A stretch of 64,000 nt of DNA from Mycobacterium noviomagense (GTDB lineage Bacteria; Actinomycetota; Actinomycetes; Mycobacteriales; Mycobacteriaceae): assembly GCF_010731635.1 (NCBI RefSeq), contig NZ_AP022583.1, positions 1,488,001 to 1,552,000 of the forward strand. The letters are read 5' to 3'. The position numbers were made by a program, and so were the translations under genes. The notes under the pieces were generated by a model. That model was not told the origin of the DNA and did no database searches. It worked only from the letters and a program-made list of their open reading frames with translations. Positions 20,601-38,069 of the stretch are shown here, in pieces (position 1 is the stretch's first letter; the number at the start of each line of letters is the position of its first letter).

Positions 20601-20939
20601 GCCGGTATGCACACCGATGCGCAACCGGATCGGCGCCAACGGGGCACGTTGCAGCTCCAACGCCGCAACCACCGCATCCGAGGCCCGGGCGAATGCCGCC
20701 ACGAAGCTGTCGCCCTCGCCCTGCTCGACCGGGCGTACCCCCTCATGAGCCGCGACGACATCGCACACGACTTGGTTGAAGCGCGCGATCGCGTCCGTCA
20801 TTTCCTCAGGCTGCGTCTCCCACAGCCGCGTGGAGCCTTCGACGTCTGCCAACAGCAGCGTCACCGTGCCGGTGGGCAGAAGCCCGCTTACGCCCAACTC
20901 GCTCCAGTTCAGCAGCGGTGTGTCCGCGCGTTCGCTCAT
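17643..20939 (-). CDS. Cyclase / NB-ARC ATPase / LuxR-HTH giant regulator, copy 1
   Basis: 1098 aa from the ATG at 20939, the start conserved in all paralogues here (an ATG lies 4 codons upstream). Class III nucleotide cyclase domain at about 20-185: metal-binding Asp32 (LLADVEGST) and Asp77 (GEGDSF), and the Asn129-x3-Arg133 transition-state pair. NB-ARC/AAA ATPase at about 205-480 with Walker A TGTGGVGKT (Lys243) and MLLVLDNCEHLLD. A long TPR-like helical region follows. The last 65 residues are a LuxR HTH (LTPTERDVVRLVSEGLANND). M. tuberculosis relatives are Rv0386, Rv1358, Rv2488c and Rv0890c. It probably integrates a ligand with transcription. Confidence 0.9.
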   Translation of the reverse strand: MSERADTPLLNWSELGVSGLLPTGTVTLLLADVEGSTRLWETQPEEMTDAIARFNQVVCDVVAAHEGVRPVEQGEGDSFVAAFARASDAVVAALELQRAPLAPIRLRIGVHTGEVQLRNEGNYAGPTINRTARLRNLAHGGQTVLSATTSDLVVDRLPDGAWLTDLGTHPLRDLPRPERVVQLCHPDLRNDFPPLRVTKTVASQHLPVQLSRFVGRDAELAQVRELLAHNRLVTLTGTGGVGKTRLAVQIAARLAEEFADGIWYVDLAPITDPDVVPIAVARALELPDQPGRSTMDTLTRFVADRQMLLVLDNCEHLLDASAAMVVALLGAGPDVTVLATSREAIGVAGEVGWRMPSLSLADEAVELFEDRARRVRPDFAVCDDNAATVKEICTRLDGLPLAIELAAARVRALSLDEILDSLHDRFRLLTGGARTAVRRQQTLRASVDWSHALLTEPERVLFRRLAVFMGGFDLDAAQAVAGSGDVERFQVLDLLTLLVDKSLVVAEHASGATRFLLLETVRQYAQEKLVESGEADTVRTRHRDYYTAMAAPLDAPAGSDYEQRLEQAETEIDNLRAAFAWSLENHDIEPALALASSLQPLWQARGRVREGLAWFDAALSDLDVQRAEVVLAVRARALADRAVLGVWLGDADSPDQAQQALTIAREIDDAALLVRALTACGIVAALSAEAAGPYFAEAIGLARDLGDRWRLSQILAGQARAANHAADPLATRAPAEEGRDLADAIGDRYNSRICRYCLAWAQIHQGELASAATQLADLLADARAAHDGLMELQCLGGQGVVLALQGEVAAARAAAEAAVNAAAEVGGAYAAYGYAALSFSAMAGGDAAALQDAADAWPQVTTLPQMAALQRTYSAAAALAGGDLVAARRWADAAVSTSWGGFQAAALLMRARVAIAAGEFEQGERDSHEALSLAASTGAHLNVPDILESLAALAGEAGSHPEAARLFGAAQAIRQRMGSVRFKIYDFADEATVALRNTMGDNDFEAAWSEGAALSTEEAIAYAQRRHGERKRPASGWASLTPTERDVVRLVSEGLANNDIATRLFVSPRTVQSHLTHVYTKLGLSSRVQLAQEAARHV

Positions 20940-20969
20940 GCTAGCCACCATGCGGCCACCACGGGCCGC

Positions 20970-21767: not shown

Positions 21768-24700
21768 TCAGTGCCGTGCTGCTTCTTGGACGAGCTGCAC
21801 GCGTGAGGTGAGGCCGAGTTTGCTGTAGACGTGGGTGAGGTGGGATTGCACGGTCCGCGGTGAGACGAAAAGCCTTGTGGCGATGTCCTTGTTGGGCAGC
21901 CCTTCGCCGACCAATCGGACGACGTCGCGCTCGGTCGGAGTCAGCGATCCCCAGCCACTGGTGGAGCGTCGGCGCTCGCCGCGACCGCGTTGGGCATACG
22001 CGATCGCTTCCTCCATCGAGAGGGCAGCACCTTCGGCCCAGGCGACGTCAAAATCCTGCTGCCCCAACGCGTCCCGAACTGCCGCCACCGCGGCGTCGTA
22101 GCCTGCCTGATACATCGGGAAGTGGGCTTGCCCGGTGCGCTGCCGGATGGCATCGGCCGCGCCGAACAGCCGCGCCGCGTTGTGATGGTTGGCGCCGTCG
22201 GCGGCCAACCGGGCCAGGCATTCCACGGTGTCGGGCAGGCGCAGATATCCGTGGGTGCGGGCGGCGATCGCCAGGGCCTCATGCGCGTCGCGCTCGGCCT
22301 GCTCCGGCTCACCCTGGGCGATCGCCACGTAGGCGCGCGCCGTCAGCGCGACCATCTGGTACCAGCCCGGTACCACCGCGACGGTGTCGTCAGCCCACCG
22401 GCGAGCAGCGGCCAGATCACCGCACGCCAGGGCAGCCTCGGCCAGCGGGTTGGCGCCCCGGATGAAGACCTCGCGCTGCGGAACGGTGTGCCGCCAGGCC
22501 ACCTCGCAGGCCTGCCTCGCGGCAGCAGTGTCGCCGCCGGCCAGGGCGGCTTGGGCGAACACTGCATACACCGCGTCGCGGTAGACCCCGCCGATCGCAT
22601 CCGAGACGGCGAGTGCGGATTGGGCCGCGGCGTACGCGGCGACCGCGTGTCCTTGGTATGCGAGCACCAGGCCCTGGCTCACATAACCAAGGACCGCCGT
22701 GATCAGGTGGCCAGCCGCCTGCGCATCCTCGGCTGACGAACGGAGAACCCGGCTGGCGTCAGCGAGATTTCCCTGCGCCGCCATCGCGAAGCCCAACCAC
22801 GCGCGGCAGTTCCCCGACAGGAACCGGTCGCCCAGCGCGTCGGCAAGGTCTCGTCCTTCCTCGGCGGCCGCGCGCGCTGCCGTCGGCTCGCCGGCAATAC
22901 CAGCGGTGCCCGCCATCCACAGGAGGATTCCGCATAGCGTCCAACGATCACCGGCCGCGCGGGCCAAGTCGATCGCCTCGGCGAAGTATGGTGTGGCCAC
23001 CTCGGCGGTGTAGGCACCAAGCATCCCGCACGCCATGAGGGCTCGAGTGATCAATCCCGGGTCGTCGAGCTCACGGGCGATGGCCAGGGCTTCCCGCGCC
23101 TGATCCAGGCTCGCGGCGACGCCCGTCGACGCCGCGAGGAAGCTATTGTCCGCGACCGCGCGCACCCAGACGGCCGGCGCCACCTCCGGGTGGCGCTCAT
23201 CGGTTAAGACGGCGTCGAACCCGGCCAATCCTTCCCGGACACGTCCGCGCCGTTCCCAGAACGGATACAGCGACGACACCAGCCGCAACGCCGTCTCGAC
23301 ATCGGAATTCTCCCGGCTCCAGGCGAACGCGGCGCGCAGATTGTCGATCTCGACGTCCGCCCACTGCACCAGCCGCTCATCGCCGGCCTGCACCTGCGAT
23401 TCCAGCGCGGCGGCGGCTTGCGTGTAGTAGTCGCGGTGACGGGTGCGCACATCGACGGCTTCCCCGGATTCGCTGAGCTTCTCCAACCCGTACTGGCGCA
23501 CCGTCTCCAACAACCGGTACCGCATGCCGCCGCCGGCCTCCTCGGCGACCACCAGGGATTTGTCGACCAACAGGCTCAGTTGGTCAAGGATTTGGTAGCC
23601 CTCCACATCGCTGCTGGCGCCGACCGTCTGGGCGGCATCCAGGTCGAATCCGCCCATGAACGCCGCCAGCCGGCGGAACAACACCCGTTCGGGCTCGGTC
23701 AGCAGCGCATGCGACCAATCCACCGAAGCCCGCAACGTCTGCTGGCGCCGCACGGCGGTTCGTGCTCCGCCGGTCAGTAACCGGAACCGATCGTGGAGGC
23801 TGTCGACGATTTGCGTCAGCGACAACGCACGGGTGCGTGCCGCAGCGAGCTCGATGGCCAGCGGCATGCCATCGAGCCGCCGACAGATCTCGGTGACGAG
23901 GCCGACGTTGTCGTCGCTGACACGAAAGTCGGGTCGGATTCGCCGGGCCCGGTCGGTGAACAGCTCGATGGCCTCTTCGTCCACTGATAGCGATGGCACG
24001 CGCCAGGTCAGCTCACCGGGTAGGCCGAGCGGTTCGCGGCTGGTGGTCAGAATTGTCAGTTGCGGGCAGGCATCGAAGAGCTCGCCGATCATCTGGCCGC
24101 ACGCGTCGAGGAGGTGCTCGCAGTTGTCAAGAAGCAGCAGCATTTTGCGGTCGCCGACGAAACTCAGGAGTATTTCCATGGTCGAGCGGCCCGGTTGATC
24201 GGGTAGGCCAAGCGTGCGGGCGACGGTCAACGGCACCGCGACGGGATTGGTGACCGGTGCCAGGTCGATGAACCAGACGCCGTCCGGAAACTCGCCGACG
24301 AGCCCGGCGGTGACCTGCACGGCCAGTCGCGTCTTTCCGGCGCCACCGGCCCCGGTCAAGGTGACAAGCCGGTTGTCGGCGATGATCTGCCGCAACCGGA
24401 TGCTTTCGGTTTGTCGGCCAATGAAATTGGTTAGCTGGGCCGGAAGATGCTGTGACACCGTGGCTTTGGCGACGCGCAGCGGCGGAAATTCGTTGCGCAG
24501 ATCGGGATGGCACAGTTGCACAACCCGTTCCGGGCGAGCGACGCCACGCAGCTCGTGCGTGCCCAGGCCGGTCAGCCAAGCGTCGGCGGGCAGCGCGTCA
24601 ACGACGAGATCCTCGGTCGTGCCCGAAAGCACGGTCTGGCCACCATGAGCCAAATCCCGCAGCCGCGCCGTCCGATTGATGGTCGGGCCGATGTAATTGC

Positions 24701-25070
24701 CCTCATCGCGCAACTGGACCTCGCCGGTGTGTACGCCGATCCGCAGCCTGATTGGGGCCAGCGGCGCCCGCTGCAATTCCAATGCACATGCCACCGCATC
24801 GCTAGCCCGCGCGAATGCCACCACAAAGCTGTCACCCTCGCCTTGTTCCACAGGGCGCGCCCCGCCAAAAGACGTGAGCAGATCGGACAGCGCGTGATCC
24901 AGCCGAGTGAACGCCGCGGTCATCTCCTCGGGCTGGGTTTCCCATAGCCGCGTGGAGCCTTCGACGTCTGCCAACAGCAGCGTCACCGTGCCCGTCGGCA
25001 AAAGCGCGCTCACGCCAAGCTCACTCCAGTCCACCAGCGGTATGTCCGCGCGTGGATCGATCTGGCTCAT
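21768..25070 (-). CDS. Cyclase / NB-ARC ATPase / LuxR-HTH giant regulator, copy 2
   Basis: 1100 aa from the ATG at 25070 (MSQIDPRADIPLVDWSELG); the frame runs 32 codons further with no coding character. Same order as copy 1: cyclase (LLADVEGSTRLWETQ, GEGDSF, INRTARL), ATPase with Walker A TGAGGAGKT, the near-invariant LTGGARTAVRRQQTLRASVD segment, a divergent TPR-like middle, and LuxR HTH (LTPTERDVVRLVGEGLPNKD). The N-terminal half and HTH are much closer to copies 1 and 3 than the sensor-like middle. Confidence 0.9.
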   Translation of the reverse strand: MSQIDPRADIPLVDWSELGVSALLPTGTVTLLLADVEGSTRLWETQPEEMTAAFTRLDHALSDLLTSFGGARPVEQGEGDSFVVAFARASDAVACALELQRAPLAPIRLRIGVHTGEVQLRDEGNYIGPTINRTARLRDLAHGGQTVLSGTTEDLVVDALPADAWLTGLGTHELRGVARPERVVQLCHPDLRNEFPPLRVAKATVSQHLPAQLTNFIGRQTESIRLRQIIADNRLVTLTGAGGAGKTRLAVQVTAGLVGEFPDGVWFIDLAPVTNPVAVPLTVARTLGLPDQPGRSTMEILLSFVGDRKMLLLLDNCEHLLDACGQMIGELFDACPQLTILTTSREPLGLPGELTWRVPSLSVDEEAIELFTDRARRIRPDFRVSDDNVGLVTEICRRLDGMPLAIELAAARTRALSLTQIVDSLHDRFRLLTGGARTAVRRQQTLRASVDWSHALLTEPERVLFRRLAAFMGGFDLDAAQTVGASSDVEGYQILDQLSLLVDKSLVVAEEAGGGMRYRLLETVRQYGLEKLSESGEAVDVRTRHRDYYTQAAAALESQVQAGDERLVQWADVEIDNLRAAFAWSRENSDVETALRLVSSLYPFWERRGRVREGLAGFDAVLTDERHPEVAPAVWVRAVADNSFLAASTGVAASLDQAREALAIARELDDPGLITRALMACGMLGAYTAEVATPYFAEAIDLARAAGDRWTLCGILLWMAGTAGIAGEPTAARAAAEEGRDLADALGDRFLSGNCRAWLGFAMAAQGNLADASRVLRSSAEDAQAAGHLITAVLGYVSQGLVLAYQGHAVAAYAAAQSALAVSDAIGGVYRDAVYAVFAQAALAGGDTAAARQACEVAWRHTVPQREVFIRGANPLAEAALACGDLAAARRWADDTVAVVPGWYQMVALTARAYVAIAQGEPEQAERDAHEALAIAARTHGYLRLPDTVECLARLAADGANHHNAARLFGAADAIRQRTGQAHFPMYQAGYDAAVAAVRDALGQQDFDVAWAEGAALSMEEAIAYAQRGRGERRRSTSGWGSLTPTERDVVRLVGEGLPNKDIATRLFVSPRTVQSHLTHVYSKLGLTSRVQLVQEAARH

Positions 25071-25099
25071 GCTAGCCAGCGTGCGGCCGCAGCAAGCAG

Positions 25100-25122
25100 A
25101 AAACATCAGCGGAAACGCGCAT
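25100..25122 (-). promoter_or_regulatory. Conserved upstream element, copy 2
   Basis: Plus-strand AAACATCAGCGGAAACGCGC (within 25100-25122), 30 bp upstream of the start codon. It is identical over 23 bp to the element upstream of copy 3. Confidence 0.45.
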
Positions 25123-25308
25123 CTTCGACACCTTGTGCAGCGCAAATGCGTGATTCGACCCGCCACAACCGTGTTGGTTTATCGGTGCGTGCACCGCGCT
25201 ACACGCTGACATTTCCGACCCCGGGCGCGCGGATCTCCGTATTTCGCCCGATGGCGTGGGCCCGCCGTCAGCCGATAGTCGACTCAGAACCGAGCCACGG
25301 AGGCCACA

Positions 25309-26583: not shown

Positions 26584-29500
26584 TCAGGCGTGACGGGCTG
26601 CTTCCTGGACAAGCTGCACACGGGAGGTCAGGCCGAGTTTGGTGTAGACATGGGTCAGATGCGATTGCACCGTGCGGGGTGAGACGAAAAGCCTTGTGGC
26701 GATGTCGTTGTTGGCCAGTCCTTCGCTGACCAGTTGCACCACTTGATGTTCCGTCGCGGTAAGCGAGGCCCAGCCGCTACTGGGTCGTTTGCGTTGGCCG
26801 CGGCCACGCTGGGCGTAGGTGATCGCATCCTTGGTGGACAACGCCGTGCCCTCCGCCCAAGCCGAATCAAACTCGCTGTCGCCCAAGGCGTCCCGCAACG
26901 ACACGGCCGACGCTTCGTAGCCCGCATCCCAGACCTTGAAGCGCACTGAACCCATGCGCTGCCGGATGGCGTACGCCGCGCCCAACAGCCGCGCCGCTTC
27001 ATGATGACGATCGGCCTCGCCGGCCAGAACGGCGAGGCATTCGAGGATGTCTGGGATGAACAGGTGCAACTCGAGTTCAGCGGCACGCGTGAGCGCGTCA
27101 CGGGCGTCACGCTCGGCCTGCTCCGGGTCACCCTGCGCGATCGCAATGCGGGCGCGGGTCGTTAGCGCCCGCGACAAGACAAAGCCAGTCGCGGCGGTAA
27201 CGGCTTCGTTGGCCCGGCTACGCGCTGTGAGCAGGTTCCCGCCCGCGAGCGCGGCTTCCGCACTGTACAGCAGCTGCACACCCGTCGTCTGCTGCCGGGC
27301 ACGCAAGTGCGGCCAGGCCTCGATCGCGCCCAGCGCCGTCGCAGCATCCCCGGCGGCCAAGGCCCCGACGACCACCGCCGCGTAGCCCATCGCTGAGAAC
27401 AGCCCGCCCGCATCGGCGGCCGCTTCGGTGGCCGCGTCGGCCGCGGCCCTCATCGCAGCCGGGTCACCCTGGAAGGCCAGCACGACTGCGTGCAACGCGA
27501 GACTTTGCGCCTCGCTGAGCTCGTCGTGAGCTGCCTTGGCCTCGGTCGCCAGCTCGGCGAATTGTGCGGCGGCGCCAGCCAGCTCGCCCAGATACATCTG
27601 TGCCCATCCGAGGATGTAGCGGCACCGGTGTGAGCCGTATCGGTCGCCGATCGCGACGGCGAGGTCGCGCCCTTGTTCGGCGGGCGCGCACGCAGCGGCC
27701 GGATCACCGCCGTTCAGCTCTGCGCCCGCCTGCGCGGTTAGGATTTGGCTCAGCAGCCACCGGTCTTGCAAGGCTGGGGCCAGCCCGAGCGCCTCAGCGA
27801 AGTACGGCCGGGCCGAGTCGGCGCTGACGACGCTGACGATGTAGCCGCAGGCGGCCAGCGCCCGCGCCAGCAGGGCCGGGTCGCCGACCTTGCGGGCGAT
27901 CGCCAGGGCTTGCTGAGCCTGATCCAAGCTGTCGGCGGCGCCCATCCAGATGGCCAGCATGGCCCTGTCGGCGAGTGCCCGTGCCCGCACCGAGGCGGCG
28001 ACGTCGTCGTGCCGCGCGTCGAGGTCGGCCAGCGCGGTGTCGAACCACACGAGCCCCTCCCGGAGGCGCCCACGCGCTTGCCATAACGGCTGCAGCGAGG
28101 ACGCCAGCGCCAACGCCAACTCGAGATCGGAACGTTCGAGGCTCCACCCGAATGCGGCGCGCAGGTTGTCGATCTCGGTTTGGGCCAGATCGAGTCGCTG
28201 CTCGTAGTCGGTGTCGGATGGCTGATCGAGTAGGGCCGCGAGTGCGGTGTAATGATCGCGGTGGCGGGTGCGCACGGTGTCGGCCTCGCCGGACTCGCCG
28301 AGCTTTTCCAGGGCGTACTGTCGGACCGTTTCGAGCAATCGGTATCGCGTTCGGCCTCGGGTGTTTTCGGCGACTACCAACGATTTGTCGACTAGTAGGG
28401 TGAGTTGATCGAGGACTTGGTAGCGCTGCAGTCCGTCGGCGCCTGCGACAGCCTGGACTGCGTCGATGTCGCACCCGCCGAGGAACACGGCCACTCGACG
28501 GAGCAGGATGCGTTCGGTTTCGGTGAGCAGCGCGTGCGACCAATCCACCGAAGCGCGCAGCGTCTGCTGGCGGCGAACCGCGGTGCGCGCGCCGCCGGTC
28601 AACAGGCGAAACCGGTCATGCAGGCTGTGGAGGATCTCGGCCACCGACAGCGCCCGCACCCGCGCGGCCGCGAGCTCGATCGCCAAGGGCATTCCATCCA
28701 ACCGCTGGCAGATTTCCGCGACGGTAGCGGCATTGTCGTCGGTAATGGCGAAGCCGGTCTGGGCCAGCCGAGCCCGGTCGGCGAACAACTCGATCGCTTC
28801 GTCGGCCGTCGACAGTGACGGCACCCGCCACGTCACCTCACCCGTCACGCCGATTGGCTCCCGACTGGTCGCCAGGAGCGTCAGCCCCGGCGCCGCACCC
28901 AACAGCGAGGCGACCAGATCGGCGCAAGCATCGAGCAGATGCTCGCAGTTGTCCAACACCACCAGCATGTGGCGGTCACGAATGAAACGAAGCAGTATGT
29001 CCATCGTCGAGCGGCCGGGCTGGTCGGTTAGACCCAGCGCGCGCGCCACAGTTACCGACACCACAGCGTGATCGGTGATCGGCGCCAAATCCACGTACCA
29101 GACCCCATCGGCGTATTCGGCGGCCAACTGGTTCGCGACTTCTATGGCCAGGCGCGTCTTGCCCACCCCGCCAGCGCCTGTCAGCGTTACCAACCGGCTC
29201 TGCGCCAACAGCTTTCGCACGTCGGTCAACTGTTCGCTGCGACCGACGAAGCTGGTGAACTGCGACGGGATATTGTGCGCAGCAATGCTTTTAGGCGTTC
29301 GCAACGGTGGGAACTCATTGCGGAGATCGGGATGGCACAGCTGCACGACCCGTTCGGGGCGCGGAACACCACGCAACTCGTGGGTCCCCAGATCGGTCAG
29401 CCACGCATCGGGTGGAAGCGCGTCGACAACTAATGCCTCGGTCACCCCCGACAGCACCGTCTGCCCGCCGTGGGCCAGATCCCGAAGCCGCGCTGTGCGA

Positions 29501-29895
29501 TTGATCGTCGGACCGATGTAGTTACCCTCATCGCGCAACTGGACCTCGCCGGTGTGCACGCCGATCCGCAAGCTGATCGGCGCCAATGGTGCCCGCTGCA
29601 GGTCAAGCGCGCACGCCACCGCGTCGCTGGCCCGCGCGAACGCAATGACGAAACTGTCGCCTTCACCTTGCTCCACCGGCCGGACCCCGCTATGGGCGTC
29701 AAGCAGATCCGTTAATTTGCGATCCAGCCGTGCGAACGCGGCGGTCATCTCCTCCGGCTGGGTCTCCCACAGCCGCGTGGAGCCTTCGACGTCAGCTAAT
29801 AGCAACGTCACGGTGCCAGTCGGCAGCAGCCCGCTCACGCCTAGTTCGCTCCAGTCCACCAGCGGCGTCTCCGCGCGTGGATCAATGTCGCTCAT
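26584..29895 (-). CDS. Cyclase / NB-ARC ATPase / LuxR-HTH giant regulator, copy 3
   Basis: 1103 aa from the ATG at 29895 (MSDIDPRAETPLVDWSELG). Cyclase residues conserved (LLADVEGST, GEGDSF, GPTINRTARL). Walker A is TGAGGVGKT and the ATPase segment MLVVLDNCEHLLD. The C-terminal LuxR HTH reads LTATEHQVVQLVSEGLANND. Its TPR-like region resembles copy 1 more than copy 2 (QPLWQARGR, AIRQRMGSVRFK). It ends 3 bp from the convergent P450 stop. Confidence 0.9.
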   Translation of the reverse strand: MSDIDPRAETPLVDWSELGVSGLLPTGTVTLLLADVEGSTRLWETQPEEMTAAFARLDRKLTDLLDAHSGVRPVEQGEGDSFVIAFARASDAVACALDLQRAPLAPISLRIGVHTGEVQLRDEGNYIGPTINRTARLRDLAHGGQTVLSGVTEALVVDALPPDAWLTDLGTHELRGVPRPERVVQLCHPDLRNEFPPLRTPKSIAAHNIPSQFTSFVGRSEQLTDVRKLLAQSRLVTLTGAGGVGKTRLAIEVANQLAAEYADGVWYVDLAPITDHAVVSVTVARALGLTDQPGRSTMDILLRFIRDRHMLVVLDNCEHLLDACADLVASLLGAAPGLTLLATSREPIGVTGEVTWRVPSLSTADEAIELFADRARLAQTGFAITDDNAATVAEICQRLDGMPLAIELAAARVRALSVAEILHSLHDRFRLLTGGARTAVRRQQTLRASVDWSHALLTETERILLRRVAVFLGGCDIDAVQAVAGADGLQRYQVLDQLTLLVDKSLVVAENTRGRTRYRLLETVRQYALEKLGESGEADTVRTRHRDHYTALAALLDQPSDTDYEQRLDLAQTEIDNLRAAFGWSLERSDLELALALASSLQPLWQARGRLREGLVWFDTALADLDARHDDVAASVRARALADRAMLAIWMGAADSLDQAQQALAIARKVGDPALLARALAACGYIVSVVSADSARPYFAEALGLAPALQDRWLLSQILTAQAGAELNGGDPAAACAPAEQGRDLAVAIGDRYGSHRCRYILGWAQMYLGELAGAAAQFAELATEAKAAHDELSEAQSLALHAVVLAFQGDPAAMRAAADAATEAAADAGGLFSAMGYAAVVVGALAAGDAATALGAIEAWPHLRARQQTTGVQLLYSAEAALAGGNLLTARSRANEAVTAATGFVLSRALTTRARIAIAQGDPEQAERDARDALTRAAELELHLFIPDILECLAVLAGEADRHHEAARLLGAAYAIRQRMGSVRFKVWDAGYEASAVSLRDALGDSEFDSAWAEGTALSTKDAITYAQRGRGQRKRPSSGWASLTATEHQVVQLVSEGLANNDIATRLFVSPRTVQSHLTHVYTKLGLTSRVQLVQEAARHA

Positions 29896-29925
29896 GCTAG
29901 CCAGCATGGGGTCACTGCGACCTGT

Positions 29926-29948
29926 AAAACATCAGCGGAAACGCGCAT
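29926..29948 (-). promoter_or_regulatory. Conserved upstream element, copy 3
   Basis: Plus-strand AAACATCAGCGGAAACGCGC within this interval, 31 bp upstream of the copy 3 start. Similarity with copy 2 continues further upstream (CAGCGCAAAT.TGCG). Confidence 0.45.
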
Positions 29949-30027
29949 GTTTGGCACCGCATCCAGCGCAAATATGCGATCCGGCCCGGCACTAGTCCGC
30001 GTTTTCCACCGCACGGCCGACAAAAGG

Positions 30028-30200
30028 CTGAGCCGCGCGAACGCCGCCGTCATCTGCTCGGGCCGGCTCTCCCACAACCCGGTGGAGTTTTCGACGTCAG
30101 CCAACAGCAGCGTCACCGTGCCCGTCGGCAAAAGCCCGCTCACGCCAAGCTCACTCCAGTCCACCAGCGGCGTGTCCGCGCGTGGATCGATCTCGCTCAT
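30028..30200 (-). pseudogene. Truncated fourth copy of the cyclase/LuxR regulator (N-terminus only)
   Basis: From the ATG at 30200 the frame encodes 58 or so residues matching the other copies (MSEIDPRADTPLVDWSELG, LLADVENST, TAAFARLS). It then loses similarity at about 30028 and runs on in unrelated sequence to a stop near 29892. The GEGDSF Asp, ATPase and HTH are all missing, and ADVEGST has become ADVENST. Its start is preceded by the same upstream element as the intact copies. It looks like a recombination remnant. Confidence 0.85.
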
Positions 30201-30229
30201 GCTAGCCAGCATGCGGCGGGCCAGAGCCC

Positions 30230-30251
30230 CAAACATCAGCGAAAACGCGCA
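30230..30251 (-). promoter_or_regulatory. Conserved upstream element, copy 4
   Basis: Plus-strand CAAACATCAGCGAAAACGCG in this interval, 30 bp upstream of the start of the truncated copy. Confidence 0.4.
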
Positions 30252-30423
30252 GAGGAAGGGTCCCCACACGCCGATTTCGTCCGAACCATTAGCACCCCGA
30301 GGTGAAGACCCGATCAGCAATGCCCGTCCCATGGGCCTGTCGATGTTGCGGGGTGTTTGCAATTGACAGGGCAGGACTAAACTATGCCGCGTGGCCGCGT
30401 CATGGGCCTGGAGGCACCCTACG

Positions 30424-30919: not shown

Positions 30920-32944
30920 TCAGCGCTCAGGCTGGGGTGGGGATATTGCTAGTTCGGCGACCAGCCGGCGAACACGGCCTTCAATTTCGTCGCGGATGAG
31001 CCGTACTGCCGCCACATCTTTACCGTCTGGGTCGTCGAGGTCCCAGTCTTCGTAACGGCGGCCGGGCAACGTTGGGGGAGCATCGCCGCAGCCCATGCTG
31101 ATGATCACGTCGGCGGCTTGGATGATCTCGTAGCTCCACGGTTTGGGGTATTCGTCGGCGATGTCGATCCCGTGCTCGGCCATCACGGCGATGGCAGCTG
31201 GGTTGATCTGGCCGTGGGGCGCTGAACCACCAGACCACGCCACGGCCGCGTCCCCGATGAGACGGCTGAAAAAACCCATGGCCATTTGGGATCGGCCCGC
31301 GTTGTGGTTGCACAAGAACAACACCACCGGCTTGTCGTCGGTTGATTTGCCTTCCACCTTCGCCAGGGCGCGAAGTCGTTGCCGCGCGAAGCGCTCTGCG
31401 AGCAGCGCCAAAAATTCTTGAACGGTAGCGGAGATGGCGAGCTGGTCGTAGGACGAGTACAGGACCCGCTCAATGGTCTCCGAATTGAAGGTGTCGGCGA
31501 ACTCGCTGTGCAATCGCGCTACTGCCGATTTGAGCGCTTGACGCTGGCGGCCCCCGCGCAGCTCATCAAGGTAGGCGACGAACTCGCTCCATTCCAAAAG
31601 GTTCACCATCCGCCCGGCTGTTCCCCGTACGATCAGCCGGGCCTGATTCTCATTGTGCGGAACCAGTTCTCCGGGTTCCTGCTCGTTGCTGATCACCCGA
31701 TGGGTGGTTTTGTCGTCGCCGTTGTGGTTATGGGACTGCTGGCTGCGGGTGGTTTTGGCCGCCCATAACGTCGCTGCCTCCATCAGGTCGTCTTCAGGGG
31801 CGCCGTACATGATCAGCGACGCGGGCAGAGCATCGCGAATCGCGCGGCCCTGCAGTGGCCCATAGATCGCGTCGAGCTGCGAAGTTGACTGAGCCGCAAA
31901 ACATATCGATACCCCCAAGCCGCGGCTTTCGGCCAGATACCGCGGCAGCCGCGGCAGCGGCGTGTTGGTGATGTCATCCAAAAACATGCCCACCCGCGGG
32001 AATTCGTCCCATTGAGCGCTTTTGACCCGCTGGCGGTTAATCACTTGGTCCATCAACGTGATCGCCTGCGCAGCCATGGTGCCGTCATCGGGAGTCAGCA
32101 GGTACACCGTCGCGTGGTGCTCATCGAGGAACGACAGATCCAAACTCGACAGCTCGCGGTCACGCAACCAGGTGCGCAGCCACGCCGTCAATACCTTGGT
32201 CACCGTGATCTTCACCGAATCACGCAGGCGCGGCGCCATATCCAAAACCCCGCGCACCCGCGCCTCAAACAACCTGCTGTCGCACCACGCTGCCGCGGAC
32301 GCCCACGACGGGGTCGTACATTGGTAGCCCAGCCCATTGCGGGGTTTCGCCACATCCTCGGCGGCCTCCAGCGTCCACTCAATCCCCCCACCAGTGCAAG
32401 CTGGACTGGCCGCAAACAACAGGCACGTCAACGGGGCGAACGCCAACTCATCCCACGGCCGGGGATCGGCGGCGCTGCGAAGCGAGCCCCCTCTCAACAC
32501 CACCGTCGACATGCTCAGCAGTGTTTCGGCGACAGCTTCGGCGTCCTCGAGTGTGCTGATCAGGGTTGTGGGATCGAAGCGGTAGCGAATGAACTCGGCC
32601 GGGTAATACGATTTGCTGTTCGGCCGCAAGTCCAGCAGCGCCGCCCGCCCATAGCGGCGTGAGGCGACCAGCTGCATCAGGTCATCCTTGCTGGAGGACA
32701 CCAACGCCGGGCCGGGCCAAAGCACCGCGCTTTGGGACAACCACTTGCGTGTCTTGCCGGTGTTCGGCGGGCCAAAACCGCCGATATGCGGGGCGGTCTC
32801 CACGGGCCGGAGACGGCCGCTGCGCTCGTCGCGGACCCAGCCGCCGAACGGGGTCACCTGTGTGTGGTGCTCGTCGTTCAGGACTTGGGCGTTTTCCTCA
32901 AACCCCGGCGTGTGAGCCACCGACCTTTGTGGCCGCGGTTTCAC
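30920..32944 (-). CDS. Conjugative coupling ATPase (TraG/VirD4-like) fused to a thioredoxin-fold-partner-type arsenate reductase
   Basis: 674 aa from a GTG start with AAAAGGAG upstream. Residues about 30-470 are a TraG/TraD-type ATPase: Walker A GPPNTGKT (58-65), Walker B around VGMFLDDIT, then RGLGVSICFAAQSTSQLDAIYG. The N-terminal membrane helices usual for VirD4 are absent. Residues 473-535 are the three-helix domain found in front of actinobacterial arsenate reductases (FADTFNSETIERVLYSSYDQ). Residues 540-665 are a low-molecular-weight phosphatase-type ArsC with P-loop CNHNAGRS (Cys545) and MGCGD (Cys619). The third redox Cys is Pro (DAPPTLPG versus DTCPYIPG in the separate arsC at 37650). 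Uninterrupted frame throughout. Confidence 0.85.
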   Translation of the reverse strand: MKPRPQRSVAHTPGFEENAQVLNDEHHTQVTPFGGWVRDERSGRLRPVETAPHIGGFGPPNTGKTRKWLSQSAVLWPGPALVSSSKDDLMQLVASRRYGRAALLDLRPNSKSYYPAEFIRYRFDPTTLISTLEDAEAVAETLLSMSTVVLRGGSLRSAADPRPWDELAFAPLTCLLFAASPACTGGGIEWTLEAAEDVAKPRNGLGYQCTTPSWASAAAWCDSRLFEARVRGVLDMAPRLRDSVKITVTKVLTAWLRTWLRDRELSSLDLSFLDEHHATVYLLTPDDGTMAAQAITLMDQVINRQRVKSAQWDEFPRVGMFLDDITNTPLPRLPRYLAESRGLGVSICFAAQSTSQLDAIYGPLQGRAIRDALPASLIMYGAPEDDLMEAATLWAAKTTRSQQSHNHNGDDKTTHRVISNEQEPGELVPHNENQARLIVRGTAGRMVNLLEWSEFVAYLDELRGGRQRQALKSAVARLHSEFADTFNSETIERVLYSSYDQLAISATVQEFLALLAERFARQRLRALAKVEGKSTDDKPVVLFLCNHNAGRSQMAMGFFSRLIGDAAVAWSGGSAPHGQINPAAIAVMAEHGIDIADEYPKPWSYEIIQAADVIISMGCGDAPPTLPGRRYEDWDLDDPDGKDVAAVRLIRDEIEGRVRRLVAELAISPPQPER

Positions 32945-32969
32945 GGAGCGCTCCTTTTGCGCGTTTTAC

Positions 32970-33322: not shown

Positions 33323-34360
33323 CTAGCCCTTATTCCTCGTGGTCAAGTCTCTATCCCTGCTCGGCTGCACCCGCTTCGGTTCCCCCGGCATCTTCGGGTA
33401 ATTCGGCGGATAGGGCAGGTCACCCAGACCACGTTCTTCATCGGCCTTGACCATCTCCAACAGCGGAGCAACCGACTGCTTGACCGTGTCCATCCCGGCC
33501 CACGGATCTTCGCGCCGGGCCACCAGGTCGGGGACCGTGGCCATGGTGTAGTCGTCTGGATCGGCGACGGCCAGTTCATCCCACGTCAAAGGGGTCGACA
33601 CGGTCGCGATCGCGGTACGCCGCACCGAATACGCCGACGCGAACGTGCGATCACGTGCGTTCTGGTTGTAGTCGACGAAGATCCGCTTCCCCCGCTCCTC
33701 CTTCCACCAGGAGGTGGTGACCGCATCCGGTGCGCGCCGTTCGACCTCGCGGGCCAGTGCGATCCCGGCGCGGCGCACTGCGATGAAATCCCAGTCGGTT
33801 GCGATCCGCACGAATACATGGACACCGCGGCCACCGGACGTCTTGGGATAGCCGATCAATCCCAGCTCGTCGAGCAGCGGCTTGAGCACCTCGACGGCGA
33901 TCGTCCGGGCCTCGGTGAAGCCCGTGCCCGGTTGCGGATCCAGGTCAACCCTCAGCTCGTCGGGGTGTTCGGTGTCGGGGCAGCGCACCTGCCACGGGTG
34001 CAGGGTAACGGTCCCCATCTGCGCGGCCCACACGATCGCCGCCGGATGGGTGACCTTCAGGGCGTCGGCGGTCCGCCCGGACGGGAACGTGACCCGGCAG
34101 GTCTGCAGGTAGTCGGGGTGGTGCGGCGGTACGCGCTTTTGGTAGATCTCTTCGCCGTCGATGCCGTCGGGGAAGCGTTGCAAATGGGTGGGACGATCGC
34201 GCAGCGCAGTCAGCATCGGTCCCCGAGCGACGGCCAAGTAATACTCGACGAGCCTGCGCTTGGTGCCGGACGAGCCGAGCTTCGGGAAATACACCTTGTC
34301 CGGGTTGGTGAACCGGACCATGATCCCGTCGACGTCGAGTTCTTCTGCAGCGCTTGGCAT
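33323..34360 (-). CDS. LigD-type polymerase domain protein (Rv3730c-like, stand-alone prim-pol)
   Basis: 345 aa, archaeo-eukaryotic primase-like polymerase fold as in the LigD polymerase domain. Catalytic Asp139/Asp141 in DELRVDLDPQPG; template/nucleotide-binding region KTSGGRGVHVFVRI; late motif FVDYNQNARDRTFASAYSVR. Such stand-alone polymerases fill gaps with ribonucleotides and act with LigC in base-excision or end-joining repair. Divergent from ligC, 171 bp apart, as in M. tuberculosis. Confidence 0.92.
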   Translation of the reverse strand: MPSAAEELDVDGIMVRFTNPDKVYFPKLGSSGTKRRLVEYYLAVARGPMLTALRDRPTHLQRFPDGIDGEEIYQKRVPPHHPDYLQTCRVTFPSGRTADALKVTHPAAIVWAAQMGTVTLHPWQVRCPDTEHPDELRVDLDPQPGTGFTEARTIAVEVLKPLLDELGLIGYPKTSGGRGVHVFVRIATDWDFIAVRRAGIALAREVERRAPDAVTTSWWKEERGKRIFVDYNQNARDRTFASAYSVRRTAIATVSTPLTWDELAVADPDDYTMATVPDLVARREDPWAGMDTVKQSVAPLLEMVKADEERGLGDLPYPPNYPKMPGEPKRVQPSRDRDLTTRNKG

Positions 34361-34531: not shown

Positions 34532-35602
34532 GTGGAGCTTCCCGTGATGCCGCCGGTCTCGCCGATGCTGGCCAAATCGGTTCCGACAGTCCCACCCGGG
34601 GCGTCGTATGAGCCCAAGTGGGATGGATTCCGGTCGATCTGTTTCCGCGACGGCGACGAGGTGGAGCTGGGCAGCCGCAACGAGCGGCCGATGACACGCT
34701 ATTTCCCGGAGCTGCTCGCCGCCTGCAAAGCAGAGTTGCCCGAACGCTGCGTGATCGACGGAGAGATCGTCATCGCCACCGCGCACGGCTTGGATTTCGA
34801 GGCGCTGCAACAGCGCATCCACCCAGCGGCCAGCCGCATCAACATGCTCGCTGAGAAGACGCCCGCCGCCTTCATTGCGTTCGACTTGCTGGCCCTCGGC
34901 GAGAACGACTACACCCGCCGACCGTTCGCCGAACGCCGCGCCGCCCTCGTCGACGCGTTGGCCGGCTCCGGTCCCTCGATCCACGTCACACCGGCGACCA
35001 CCGACCTCGGGACGGCACAGCGCTGGTTCGAGGAGTTCGAGGGAGCGGGCCTCGACGGGATCGTCGCGAAGCCGCTGACCCTCACCTATCAACCGGACAA
35101 ACGCGTCATGTTCAAGATCAAACACGAGCGCACCGCCGACTGTGTGGTCGCCGGCTACCGGGTACACAAGTCCAGCGACGACGCGATCGGCTCGCTGCTG
35201 CTCGGGCTCTACAAGGACGACGGGACCCTGGCGTCGGTCGGTGTCATCGGCGCGCTCCCGATGGCCGAGCGACGGCGGCTGTTCAGCGAATTACAGCCTC
35301 TTGTCACTACCTTCGATAACCATCCGTGGAACTGGGCCGCCCACGAAGCAGGTCAACGCACCCCGCGCAAGAACGAGTTCTCCCGGTGGAACGCCGGTAA
35401 GGACCTCTCCTTCGTGCCGCTGCGACCTGAGCGGGTGGTCGAGGTGCGCTACGACTACATGGAAGGCGAACGGTTCCGCCACACCGCGCAATTCAACCGG
35501 TGGCGCCCCGACCGCGACCCACGCTCGTGCACTTATGAACAGCTGGAGCGTCCGATCACGTTCAGCGTCGGCGAGATCGTTCCCGGTCTTAGCCCACGCT
35601 AG
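34532..35602 (+). CDS. ligC: ATP-dependent DNA ligase C
   Basis: 356 aa from a GTG start. Adenylation motif EPKWDGFR with Lys29 as the AMP-accepting residue, motif III region AFDLLALGEND, motif IV GLDGIVAKP, motif V MFKIKHERTAD, and an OB-fold C-terminus (VVEVRYDYMEGERFRHTAQF). Length and order match Rv3731 (about 358 aa). LigC seals nicks in repair with the neighbouring polymerase. Its TAG stop shares the CTAG palindrome with the arsR stop. Confidence 0.95.
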   Translation: MELPVMPPVSPMLAKSVPTVPPGASYEPKWDGFRSICFRDGDEVELGSRNERPMTRYFPELLAACKAELPERCVIDGEIVIATAHGLDFEALQQRIHPAASRINMLAEKTPAAFIAFDLLALGENDYTRRPFAERRAALVDALAGSGPSIHVTPATTDLGTAQRWFEEFEGAGLDGIVAKPLTLTYQPDKRVMFKIKHERTADCVVAGYRVHKSSDDAIGSLLLGLYKDDGTLASVGVIGALPMAERRRLFSELQPLVTTFDNHPWNWAAHEAGQRTPRKNEFSRWNAGKDLSFVPLRPERVVEVRYDYMEGERFRHTAQFNRWRPDRDPRSCTYEQLERPITFSVGEIVPGLSPR

Positions 35603-35958
35603 GCGCAGCAGTTGGGGTCCAACGCCGCGCACAACGCCTGCAAGGCTTCCGGCCGGACCCTGTGAAATACATTCATTCCTCGACGCTCTGAGACCACCAA
35701 ACCGGCCTTGCGCAGCTGGCTCAAGTGATGGCTGACCGTTGACTCGCTGAGGTCCAGCACCGCGGCCAGCTTCCCGGAGATCTCCTCGCCGGCCGAGGAA
35801 CTGAACAGATACGACACGATTTTGACCCGCACCGGATCAGCCAGGGCCTTCAAACGCAACGCAACCGCCAACGCATCGGCATCACTCATCGGGCCCGAGG
35901 CCACCGGGGCGCAACCTACTGGGGCGGTCGTGTCGATGACCGGCAACGCTTTCGGCAT
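35599..35958 (-). CDS. arsR: ArsR/SmtB-family metalloid-responsive repressor
   Basis: 119 aa from the ATG at 35958. Winged helix: LADPVRVKIVSYL, then recognition helix DLSESTVSHHLSQLRKAGLV and wing ERRGMNVFHRV. Cys residues suited to As(III)/Sb(III) binding are near the N-terminus (VGCAPV) and in the terminal NCCA. Transcribed divergently from cadI-acr3-arsC, with paired operators between. Confidence 0.92.
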   Translation of the reverse strand: MPKALPVIDTTAPVGCAPVASGPMSDADALAVALRLKALADPVRVKIVSYLFSSSAGEEISGKLAAVLDLSESTVSHHLSQLRKAGLVVSERRGMNVFHRVRPEALQALCAALDPNCCA

Positions 35959-35981
35959 TACACCATCCTGCCACATGTGTT

Positions 35982-36036
35982 GACATATATCGAAAAGGTA
36001 GGCATGCTTGGGCTGGCCACTAGTTCGATATATGTC
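35982..36036. promoter_or_regulatory. Paired ArsR operators between arsR and the ars operon
   Basis: GACATATATCGAA (35982-35994) and its exact inverse TTCGATATATGTC (36024-36036) flank a 29-bp spacer. The second site sits just before the cadI Shine-Dalgarno and the first just upstream of arsR, so one repressor could silence both directions. Confidence 0.75.
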
Positions 36037-36059
36037 TCACAGCTTGGAGGTCGGCTCCC

Positions 36060-36527
36060 ATGCCGCGTGTTCAACTCGCTCTTAATGTCGACGACCTAGA
36101 TGAGGCAATCACGTTCTACTCCAAGCTGTTTAACACCGAGCCCACCAAACGCAAGCCCGGCTACGCCAACTTCGCGATCGCCGATCCACCGCTAAAGCTG
36201 GTGCTGCTGGAAAGCCCCGGCTCGAGCGGCACCCTTAACCACCTTGGTGTGGAGGTCGACTCCAGCGAGGTCGTGCACACCGAGATCGCCCGGCTGGCCG
36301 AGGCCGGCATGTTCACCGAGAAGGAGATCGGCACCACCTGCTGCTTCGCCACTCAGGACAAGGTCTGGGTCACCGGACCCGGCGGCGAGCGCTGGGAGGT
36401 TTACACCGTGCTGGGCGACTCCGACGCCTTCGGCACCAGCCCCAATCGCCCCGAGACCACACAGAACGAGAGTGTGTGCCGTGGTGTGACCGCCACCGCC
36501 GGCGGGGCGACGGGGTCGTGCTGCTGA
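36060..36527 (+). CDS. CadI/ArsI-family vicinal-oxygen-chelate protein
   Basis: 155 aa glyoxalase-fold protein nearly identical in pattern to M. tuberculosis CadI (Rv2641). Start MPRVQLALNVDDLDEAITFYSKLF; vicinal Cys94-Cys95 in GTTCCFATQDKVWVTGPGGE; His61 and Glu113 as likely metal ligands. ArsI relatives use the Cys pair to bind trivalent organoarsenicals and cleave the C-As bond. First gene of the ars operon; stop is 2 bp before acr3. Confidence 0.92.
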   Translation: MPRVQLALNVDDLDEAITFYSKLFNTEPTKRKPGYANFAIADPPLKLVLLESPGSSGTLNHLGVEVDSSEVVHTEIARLAEAGMFTEKEIGTTCCFATQDKVWVTGPGGERWEVYTVLGDSDAFGTSPNRPETTQNESVCRGVTATAGGATGSCC

Positions 36528-36529
36528 CC

Positions 36530-37660
36530 ATGGAGACAACGCCCATCACCGGAACACCAATGACCGACACCACCAACGTCGCCGACTCATCTGCGGTGAC
36601 AAGGCTTTCCGCACTGGATCGCCTGCTGCCGATCTGGATCGGGGTAGCGATGGCCGCCGGGCTGCTGCTCGGACGCTGGGCGCCCGGGCTGAATACCGCC
36701 TTGCAGCGCGTGCAGATCGACGGGATCTCGCTGCCGATCGCCGCGGGCTTGTTGATCATGATGTATCCGGTGCTGGCCAAGGTTCGCTACGACCGGCTCG
36801 ACGCCGTCACCGCCGACCGGCGACTGCTGATCAGCTCGCTGCTGCTGAACTGGGCGCTGGGGCCGGCGGTGATGTTCACTCTGGCTTGGCTGCTGCTTCC
36901 GGATCTGCTCGAATACCGCACCGGTCTAATCATTGTCGGGCTGGCCCGCTGCATCGCCATGGTCATCGTGTGGAATGACCTGGCCGGCGGTGACCGAGAA
37001 GCCGCCGCAGTCCTTGTCGCGCTCAACTCGATCTTCCAGGTCGTCATGTTCGCCGCGCTGGGCTGGTTCTACCTTTCGGTGCTGCCCGGCTGGTTACATC
37101 TGCCCCAAACCACCATCTCCACCTCCCCGTGGCAGATCGCCAAATCCGTGCTGATCTTCCTGGGCATCCCCCTGGCTGCTGGATACGTCTCTCGACGATG
37201 GGGTCAAAAAGCCAAGGGGCGTCACTGGTATGAGGACCGGTTCTTGCCCAAAGTCGGGCCTTGGGCGCTGTACGGCCTGCTGTTCACCATCGTGATCCTC
37301 TTCGCGCTGCAAGGCGAGCAGATCACGACCCGGCCTTGGGACGTTGCCCGCATTGCGCTCCCGCTGCTGGCCTACTTCGGGATCATGTGGGGCGGCGGCT
37401 TCTTGCTGGGCTCGGCCTTGAAGCTGGGCTACGAACGCACGACCACGGTGGCGTTCACTGCTGCCGGCAACAACTTCGAACTGGCCATCGCCGTGGCGAT
37501 CGCCACCTACGGCGTCACCTCCGGGGAAGCGCTGGCCGGCGTCGTCGGACCGCTTATCGAAGTCCCCGTTCTTGTCGCCCTGGTTTATGTATCACTAGCC
37601 TTGCGGCCCAGGCTGGTTCGCCGCGCCGTCGACGACGAAGCGCTCAGCTATGACCGATAA
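36530..37660 (+). CDS. acr3: ACR3-family arsenite efflux permease
   Basis: 376 aa from the ATG at 36530 (another ATG at 36560 is possible). Ten hydrophobic helices. Conserved ACR3 features include LLINWALGP-type TM with LLLNWALGPAVM, the GLARCIAMVIVWNDLAGGD segment with the transport-essential Cys, and FTAAGNNFELAIAVAIATYG. It exports As(III)/Sb(III). In M. tuberculosis the acr3 homologue is fused to arsC; here the two are separate and overlap by 11 bp. Confidence 0.95.
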   Translation: METTPITGTPMTDTTNVADSSAVTRLSALDRLLPIWIGVAMAAGLLLGRWAPGLNTALQRVQIDGISLPIAAGLLIMMYPVLAKVRYDRLDAVTADRRLLISSLLLNWALGPAVMFTLAWLLLPDLLEYRTGLIIVGLARCIAMVIVWNDLAGGDREAAAVLVALNSIFQVVMFAALGWFYLSVLPGWLHLPQTTISTSPWQIAKSVLIFLGIPLAAGYVSRRWGQKAKGRHWYEDRFLPKVGPWALYGLLFTIVILFALQGEQITTRPWDVARIALPLLAYFGIMWGGGFLLGSALKLGYERTTTVAFTAAGNNFELAIAVAIATYGVTSGEALAGVVGPLIEVPVLVALVYVSLALRPRLVRRAVDDEALSYDR

Positions 37661-38069
37661 ACCCAGCGTCCTTTTCGTATGCGTCCACAACGCCGGCCGC
37701 TCCCAAATGGCCGCCGCACTGCTCACCCATCTCGCCGGTGACCGCATCGAGGTCTGCTCCGCCGGAACCGAACCCGCCGACCAGCTCAACCCCACCGCCA
37801 TCGCAGCGATGGCTGAACTCGGCATCGATATCACTGCCAACACACCGAAAATCCTCACCGGCGATGCGGTGCAGTCGAGCGACGTCGTGATCACCATGGG
37901 CTGCGGCGACACCTGCCCCTATATTCCTGGAGTCTCCTACCGGGACTGGGAGCTCGATGACCCCGCCGGCCAACCGCTCGACGCCGTTCGCGCGATCCGC
38001 GACGAAATCGGCGATCACGTGCGCGCCCTCATCGCCGAACTACTCCCGGCCACTCGCCGACACTGCTGA
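37650..38069 (+). CDS. arsC: Arsenate reductase, low-molecular-weight phosphatase type
   Basis: 139 aa. P-loop CVHNAGRSQMA (C-X5-R, Cys11), second Cys in MGCGD and third in DTCPYIPG, then DWELDDPAGQPLDAVRAIRDEI. Reduces As(V) to As(III) for export by ACR3, with electrons from thioredoxin or mycothiol. Unlike the copy fused to the coupling ATPase, all three redox cysteines are present. Confidence 0.95.
   Translation: MTDKPSVLFVCVHNAGRSQMAAALLTHLAGDRIEVCSAGTEPADQLNPTAIAAMAELGIDITANTPKILTGDAVQSSDVVITMGCGDTCPYIPGVSYRDWELDDPAGQPLDAVRAIRDEIGDHVRALIAELLPATRRHC

What the first reader, a model, noticed from the sequence alone, without database searches (positions are those of the whole stretch)
30920..32944. 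Conjugative coupling ATPase fused to an arsenate reductase
One unbroken 2-kb frame joins a TraG/VirD4-type DNA-transfer ATPase (Walker A GPPNTGKT) to the helical domain plus low-molecular-weight ArsC normally found as a separate enzyme. The window already has a complete separate arsC. I know of no described function that needs this pairing. Options are a recombination chimera captured from a mobile element, or a real two-domain protein in which the phosphatase-like part acts on another substrate.
Basis: partly seen in the sequence, partly recalled or inferred. Interest (0 to 1): 0.75.

Follow-up and report, generated by a model that had tools for sequence, protein, structure and literature searches.

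The report
Plasmid ATPase fused to arsenate reductase
A mycobacterium carries one gene that joins a stranded plasmid-transfer ATPase to an arsenate-reducing enzyme; the join is real and old, but the ATPase half is losing its key residues, so this looks like a working enzyme with a relic attached.

Summary
Window 30920-32944, minus strand, is one 674-codon frame: TraG-type coupling ATPase (codons 1-465) joined to a three-helix-plus-LMWP ArsC (codons 466-674). It is not an assembly join: two metagenome proteins share the junction (P0001, 692 aa, 81% identical; P0241, 299 aa), and Candidatus Mycobacterium methanotrophicum carries a broken copy in the same chromosomal neighbourhood. The TraG half falls in a clade that on two of three plasmids examined sits beside eccE/mycP and conjugation genes. 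In this genome it is orphaned: no second TraG-D_C, no VirB4-like protein, no TrwC relaxase. It breaks 11 of 138 near-invariant TraG positions (119 controls: mean 1.1, maximum 4), including the Walker B glutamate; P0001 and L032 lost the Walker A lysine. The ArsC half breaks 1 of 39 and keeps its active site. Best reading: one ancient chimera of a plasmid coupling ATPase and an arsC, kept as an arsenate reductase with a folded but catalytically degenerate N-terminal passenger. ArsC fusions, often with arsenic-related partners, are known; a TraG partner is new to our searches. Function is untested.

The parts
30920..32944 (-). Fusion ORF, 674 aa, GTG start at 32944, stop at 30920-30922
31550..32944 (-). 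TraG/VirD4-type coupling-ATPase half, codons 1-465 (TraG-D_C at codons 317-430)
32750..32773 (-). Walker A GPPNTGKT, codons 58-65 (lysine K64 present here; isoleucine in P0001 and L032)
31973..31990 (-). Walker B GMFLDD, codons 319-324; E324 of relatives is D here
30923..31549 (-). ArsC half, codons 466-674
31361..31534 (-). Three-helix N-terminal domain of the ArsC half (PF21234 / NF046112), codons 471-528
30962..31324 (-). LMWPc (ArsC catalytic) domain, codons 541-661
31292..31312 (-). ArsC active-site loop CNHNAGR, nucleophile Cys545 to Arg551
32951..32958 (-). Shine-Dalgarno-like AAAAGGAG, 6 nt before the GTG start
   Evidence: sequence
33323..34360 (-). LigD primase-polymerase, the gene upstream of the fusion; also near the broken copy in L032
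34532..35602 (+). ATP-dependent DNA ligase
35599..35976 (-). arsR-like regulator (named by eye from the translation, not scanned)
36060..36527 (+). glyoxalase-family gene beside acr3 (CadI-like is a recalled name)
36476..37660 (+). acr3-type arsenite exporter (SBF family; acr3 is a recalled name)
37650..38069 (+). separate short arsC, 139 aa, without the three-helix domain

Best explanation
The gene is an old chimera. A coupling-ATPase gene (traG) of the kind carried by mycobacterial conjugative ESX-type plasmids, now stranded in the chromosome, was joined in frame to a three-helix ArsC gene; a few to some twenty residues of the TraG tail and about the first 18-20 ArsC codons were lost at the join. 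The 674-aa protein is most likely kept for its ArsC half: arsenate is attacked by Cys545, reduced with a cellular thiol or thioredoxin partner, and the arsenite leaves through the Acr3 pump coded about 3.5 kb away. The TraG half still folds and its frame is held open because a stop would cost the ArsC, but it is no longer a conjugation motor. Shown: the frame, the shared junction, the plasmid-type relatives of the TraG half, the absence of the conjugation genes searched for, decay at TraG catalytic sites, conserved ArsC positions. Inferred: translation from the GTG, arsenate reductase activity, the redox partner, and that TraG is a passenger.
For: Domain calls (4, 5, 7). Same architecture in P0001, same junction in P0241; broken copy in the same neighbourhood in Ca. 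M. methanotrophicum. TraG halves of window, P0001 and L032 form one clade, SH-aLRT 100. Near-invariant TraG positions broken: window 11/138, P0001 9/138, L032 12/137; 119 controls mean 1.1, max 4. P0241 tail: 8/29; controls mean 0.18, max 3; it differs from the window at 20/93 TraG-tail but 17/200 ArsC positions, Fisher p 0.004. ArsC positions broken: window 1/39, P0001 1/39; 58 controls mean 0.57, max 4. TraG pN/pS, window against L032, 0.31 at pS 0.35; stand-alone pairs, doubles removed: 0.090-0.095 in 5 pairs (all sharing one sequence) at pS 0.30-0.42, 0.010-0.043 in 9 pairs at 0.05-0.30, median 0.11 (0.05-0.46) in 50 pairs at 0.42-0.55. No AAA_10, plasmid VirB4 or TrwC match in the genome. 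Neutral simulation: chance of no stop in 465 codons 0.02 at 8% and 0.01 at 10% divergence.
Against: TraG is not evolving neutrally (pN/pS about 0.3; 80 local orthologue frames, overlap frames not all removed, median 0.27), and window, P0001 and the L032 TraG piece are stop-free, so some function of that half cannot be excluded; at 3-5% divergence a neutral frame would stay open with chance 0.15-0.26. Window against P0001 the two halves are equally diverged (80.2% and 79.9%), and ArsC pN/pS against L032 (110 codons, broken partner) is 0.46, higher than TraG's. Stand-alone TraG pairs at pS over 0.55 show median 0.35 (257 pairs), but pS is near saturation there. The ArsC tree does not itself recover the four fusion ArsCs as one clade (not rejected, AU p 0.226). 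The ArsC lacks the third cysteine seen in 64 of 118 relatives and scores below the NCBIfam arsenate-reductase cut-offs. No expression data.
Confidence: 0.68

Rival explanations
1. A working two-domain protein: the TraG fold, without conjugation, was recruited as an oligomerising or nucleotide-sensing scaffold for ArsC.
For: Open frame in window and P0001; TraG pN/pS about 0.3, not 1; TraG domain predicted as folded (most 10-residue blocks from 31 to 390 have pLDDT 76-97, one 52; 391-420 lower) with one helix 452-481 crossing the junction; window keeps the Walker A lysine.
Against: Walker B glutamate lost in the window, Walker A lysine lost in P0001 and L032, 8 to 12 near-invariant positions lost in each of four copies. 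The fusion is rare: intact in 1 of 396 Mycobacterium genomes searched.
Confidence: 0.15
2. The ArsC half is translated alone from an internal start (the database's gene call uses TTG at codon 450, 225 aa), and the TraG half is untranslated pseudogene.
For: P0240 is that gene call, on 3 contigs of which the longest has this genome's length. 225 aa is close to stand-alone ArsCs of about 222 aa. P0241 starts with V inside TraG. A partial Shine-Dalgarno-like GGTGA lies 5 nt before the TTG (sequence).
Against: A fuller Shine-Dalgarno-like AAAAGGAG precedes the long frame's GTG. TraG frames stay open in window, P0001 and the L032 piece, unlikely under neutrality at 8-10% divergence.
Confidence: 0.15
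3. Assembly or sequencing artefact joining two genes.
For: None found.
Against: The same junction in P0001, P0241 and, decayed, L032, at 75-92% identity.
Confidence: 0.01

Closest known systems
TraG/VirD4-type coupling ATPases of mycobacterial ESX-bearing plasmids (for example pP4-4a of M. avium, pJCM12603 of M. poriferae, pJCM12687 of M. branderi)
   Same: TraG half is 65-71% identical to these three over about 440 residues; on the first two the gene lies beside eccE/mycP and further on a VirB4-like ATPase.
   Different: In the window it is chromosomal, fused to ArsC, lacks the Walker B glutamate, and the genome shows none of the conjugation genes searched for.
Three-helix arsenate reductase of Actinobacteria (PDB 3t38, labelled Arsenate Reductase; that it is C. 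glutamicum ArsC1' is recalled)
   Same: ArsC half aligns over 479-667, E 1.3e-46; three-helix domain, CX5R loop and WDLDDP motif present.
   Different: About 18-20 N-terminal residues replaced by the TraG half; proline in place of the second cysteine of GCGDxC.
Known ArsC fusion proteins (Acr3-ArsC, ArsR-ArsC, aquaporin-ArsC)
   Same: Same idea of ArsC as one half of a fusion. PMC6514093 (passages seen) reports Acr3-ArsC in Mycobacterium/Mycolicibacterium and ArsR-ArsC in different genera; one search lists aquaporin-family and other partners.
   Different: Those partners are often arsenic-linked; here the partner is a DNA-transfer ATPase.

Membership tests
T4SS coupling protein (TraG/VirD4) | TraG-D_C domain over Pfam cut-off | tested here: met
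   43.6 bits against 22
T4SS coupling protein (TraG/VirD4) | RecA-like coupling-protein fold | tested here: met
   Foldseek best matches TrwB, E 1.1e-10, TM 0.57 by target, 15% identity; model
T4SS coupling protein (TraG/VirD4) | Walker A lysine and Walker B acid pair DE | tested here: not met
   Window GPPNTGKT but FLDD, not LDE; P0001 and L032 GPPDTGIT
T4SS coupling protein (TraG/VirD4) | Works with a relaxase and a VirB4 ATPase in the same cell | tested here: not met
   No match in the own genome to AAA_10, a plasmid VirB4 or TrwC; other relaxase families not searched
T4SS coupling protein (TraG/VirD4) | N-terminal membrane anchor | not tested
   no transmembrane prediction was run
Three-helix LMWP arsenate reductase | Three-helix domain followed by LMWPc | tested here: met
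   PF21234 60.8 (27), NF046112 48.7 (25), LMWPc 61.2 (23.2)
Three-helix LMWP arsenate reductase | CX5R nucleophile loop and Asp-bearing WxLDDP motif | tested here: met
   CNHNAGRS at 545, WDLDDP
Three-helix LMWP arsenate reductase | Third cysteine (GCGDxC) as in 3t38 | tested here: not met
   Proline in the window; Cys in 64 of 118 relatives read by pattern, 15 of them without the pattern
Three-helix LMWP arsenate reductase | Score over NCBIfam arsenate reductase models | tested here: not met
   83.5 against 157.6 (TIGR02689), 65.9 against 174.3 (TIGR02691), 75.1 against 215 (NF010053); stand-alone relatives not scanned
Three-helix LMWP arsenate reductase | Reduces arsenate | not testable with these tools
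   needs an enzyme assay
Known ArsC fusion proteins | Partner is an arsenic-related protein | tested here: not met
   Partner is TraG; among the 120 listed of 142 hits only P0001 carries a TraG domain

The most novel reading that the evidence does not exclude
A conjugation coupling-ATPase fold, cut off from its plasmid, has been domesticated as a non-motor scaffold (perhaps oligomerising or nucleotide-sensing) for an arsenate reductase, kept in frame across diverged mycobacterial lineages while its ATPase chemistry was lost by different routes.
Probability: 0.15. Interest if true: 0.55.

Novelty: new variant of a known kind. Interest (0 to 1): 0.36.

Why it matters
It shows how a stranded plasmid gene can survive in a chromosome by being welded to a useful enzyme, and it gives a clean before-and-after comparison (free plasmid TraG against fused TraG) for watching a motor domain lose its catalytic residues while the reading frame stays open. 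It also exposes an annotation blind spot: the protein database held this locus as a 225-aa ArsC alone, and no full-length identical protein was among the 120 best hits, where it would have ranked first.

Tried and rejected
Donor arrangement: looked for traG and arsC as neighbouring separate genes. None of 11 traG loci and 3 plasmids fetched holds an arsC, and none of 7 arsC loci holds a traG; one of those 7 (L131) has a ligase beside acr3 and arsC, as the window's ars operon does. Of 78 further loci, 69 hold a full three-helix arsC (9 dropped); none of the 69 holds traG, LigD or ligase, and 20 hold acr3. So how the two genes met is not known.

Lateral transfer of the finished fusion: TraG pS between window and L032 (0.354) is below the local median (0.48 over 80 frames, overlap frames not all removed), but the nucleotide identity (80.4%) equals that of LigD (79.7%) and the neighbourhood is the same. 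Vertical descent with a local inversion is preferred; later exchange is not excluded.

Viral origin: no relative of P0001 found in viral contigs. Plasmid-borne fusion: 567 plasmid records match, 0 cover 80% of the query. Promoter and terminator scan: near the chance level. The predicted model of the ArsC catalytic part is poor (many blocks under 60), perhaps from the mixed alignment, and is not used. Literature: searches for arsenate reductase with TraG and fusion terms and for ArsC fusions listed no title on a TraG-ArsC protein (listings only; the library is open-access only); some searches gave background listings. PMC6514093 and PMC4791881 were seen as passages.

Selection baseline: the first stand-alone TraG baseline held the same sequences twice; one search removed the doubles and its numbers are used. 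Rechecking the sequence before codon 450 showed a partial Shine-Dalgarno-like GGTGA, so the odds of the internal-start rival were raised from 0.12 to 0.15 and those of the best explanation lowered from 0.70 to 0.68.

Full report
WHAT IS THERE. The frame at 30920-32944 is real, on the minus strand, 674 codons, starting at a GTG with AAAAGGAG six bases before it. Pfam finds TraG-D_C at 317-430, the three-helix Phosphatase-like_N at 471-528 and LMWPc at 541-661, all over their cut-offs. The ArsC half is closest to PDB 3t38, E 1.3e-46; the TraG half has weak sequence similarity to TrwB, and the predicted model's best Foldseek matches are TrwB (E 1.1e-10, TM 0.57 by target). The junction is at codons 465/466, where the TraG tail YLDELRGG meets RQRQALKSA of ArsC. 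Three stand-alone TraGs read in full run 5 to 22 residues past YLDELR, and stand-alone ArsCs typically begin 18-20 residues before the matching point (one, P0245, begins about 5 before it), so nearly all of both genes is kept.

IT IS NOT AN ARTEFACT. P0001, a metagenome protein of 692 aa standing for 16 sequences, matches over 99% of the length at 81%. P0241 (299 aa, from a 1658-base contig) carries the last 93 TraG residues and the same junction; what lies upstream there is not known. Candidatus M. methanotrophicum (L032) has both parts adjacent but broken: a frame change at the junction, the ArsC nucleophile cysteine replaced by arginine, and the C-terminus missing. In that genome the copy lies between mmpL-like genes and LigD, as in the window, but turned round.

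HOW RARE. In 396 Mycobacterium genomes (at most 3 candidates scored in each; drawn from a larger group) 27 have a match at E 1e-150 or better; only the window's genome shows both halves intact, and the broken copy appears in one genome. A first sample of 248 showed the same among the rows listed, its list being cut. Of 567 plasmid records with a match, none covers 80% of the query. In two protein searches (120 listed of 175, and 120 of 142) only P0001 carries both kinds of domain. The database's gene call of this locus is a 225-aa ArsC starting at TTG codon 450 (P0240, 3 contigs).

WHERE THE HALVES COME FROM. The five closest named plasmid relatives of the TraG half are on mycobacterial plasmids. 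On two of the three looked at, the gene is preceded by eccE and mycP and followed further on by a VirB4-like gene; on the third, M. branderi pJCM12687, it stands about 8 kb from eccE with no VirB4-like match in the 31 kb fetched. PMC4791881 (passages) says that pRAW and three related ESX plasmids carry type IV secretion components and a relaxase. The window's genome shows no other TraG-D_C, no AAA_10 VirB4, no plasmid VirB4 and no TrwC relaxase. The ArsC half belongs to a three-helix family that fuses often: Pfam domains of the listed partners include ArsR-type HTH, aquaporin, Acr3-type SBF and methyltransferase. It is the only three-helix domain found in this genome; a separate ars operon with acr3 and a short arsC lies at 35599-38069.

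HOW THE HALVES EVOLVE. Leave-one-out near-invariant positions: TraG broken at 11/138 (window), 9/138 (P0001), 12/137 (L032), against mean 1.1 and maximum 4 in 119 controls; ArsC broken at 1/39 (window), 1/39 (P0001), 2/19 (L032), against mean 0.57 and maximum 4 in 58 controls. Losses include the Walker B glutamate in the window and the Walker A lysine in P0001 and L032. P0241's tail breaks 8/29 (controls mean 0.18, max 3) and differs from the window at 20/93 TraG against 17/200 ArsC positions, p 0.004. TraG pN/pS against L032 is 0.31 at pS 0.35; with doubles removed, 26 stand-alone TraGs give 0.090-0.095 in the 5 pairs at pS 0.30-0.42, 0.010-0.043 in 9 pairs below that, and median 0.11 (0.05-0.46) in 50 pairs at 0.42-0.55. 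Against this: window and P0001 are equally diverged in both halves (80.2% and 79.9%), ArsC against L032, over only 110 codons and with a broken partner, has 0.46, and TraG is far from 1. A neutral TraG of 465 codons would avoid stops with chance 0.02 at 8% and 0.01 at 10% divergence, 0.15-0.26 at 3-5%; half of the observed DNA difference is about 10%. The TraG half is therefore relaxed but not free: its frame, and probably its fold, are still kept. TraG halves form one clade, SH-aLRT 100. The ArsC tree pairs window with P0241 and P0001 with L032; one clade of all four is not recovered but not rejected (p 0.226). The shared junction argues for one event.

HOW IT MOST LIKELY WORKS. Inferred: the whole protein is made from the GTG; TraG folds as an inert N-terminal domain, joined by a predicted continuous helix (452-481) to the three-helix domain; ArsC reduces arsenate through Cys545; arsenite leaves by the neighbouring Acr3. 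The reductant is open: the protein keeps Cys619 but lacks the third cysteine present in 64 of 118 relatives. PMC6514093 (passages) describes thioredoxin-dependent and mycothiol-dependent actinobacterial ArsC classes. Translation of ArsC alone from codon 450, which has a partial Shine-Dalgarno-like GGTGA before it, remains possible.

VERDICT. A real, rare and old fusion; best read as an arsenate reductase carrying a relic of a plasmid motor. New as an architecture in our searches, ordinary in kind.

Noticed in passing
window 17643-20951, 21768-25166, 26584-29907 (all -), and 29892-30362 (-): Three ORFs of about 1100 aa on one strand; the third (26584-29907) has cyclase, NB-ARC and LuxR domains, the first two were not scanned. 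A fourth, truncated frame (29892-30362) carries nearly the same start as the third.
   Followed up: partly
L032 15040-16579: In Ca. M. methanotrophicum the DNA ligase next to LigD appears cut short after its first part, followed by a frame that looks by eye like a transposase; two places there match the start of the window's ligase.
   Followed up: no
P0121 and P0122: Proteins of 407 and 457 aa that score higher on the ArsC region than P0001 despite lower identity, suggesting tandem double ArsC proteins.
   Followed up: no
L114 (M. branderi plasmid pJCM12687) 15001-16377: The closest named plasmid traG (70.9%) also stands apart, about 8 kb from eccE and without a VirB4-like match in the 31 kb fetched; similarity reaches upstream of its annotated start, with stop codons in the matched stretch.
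   Followed up: partly
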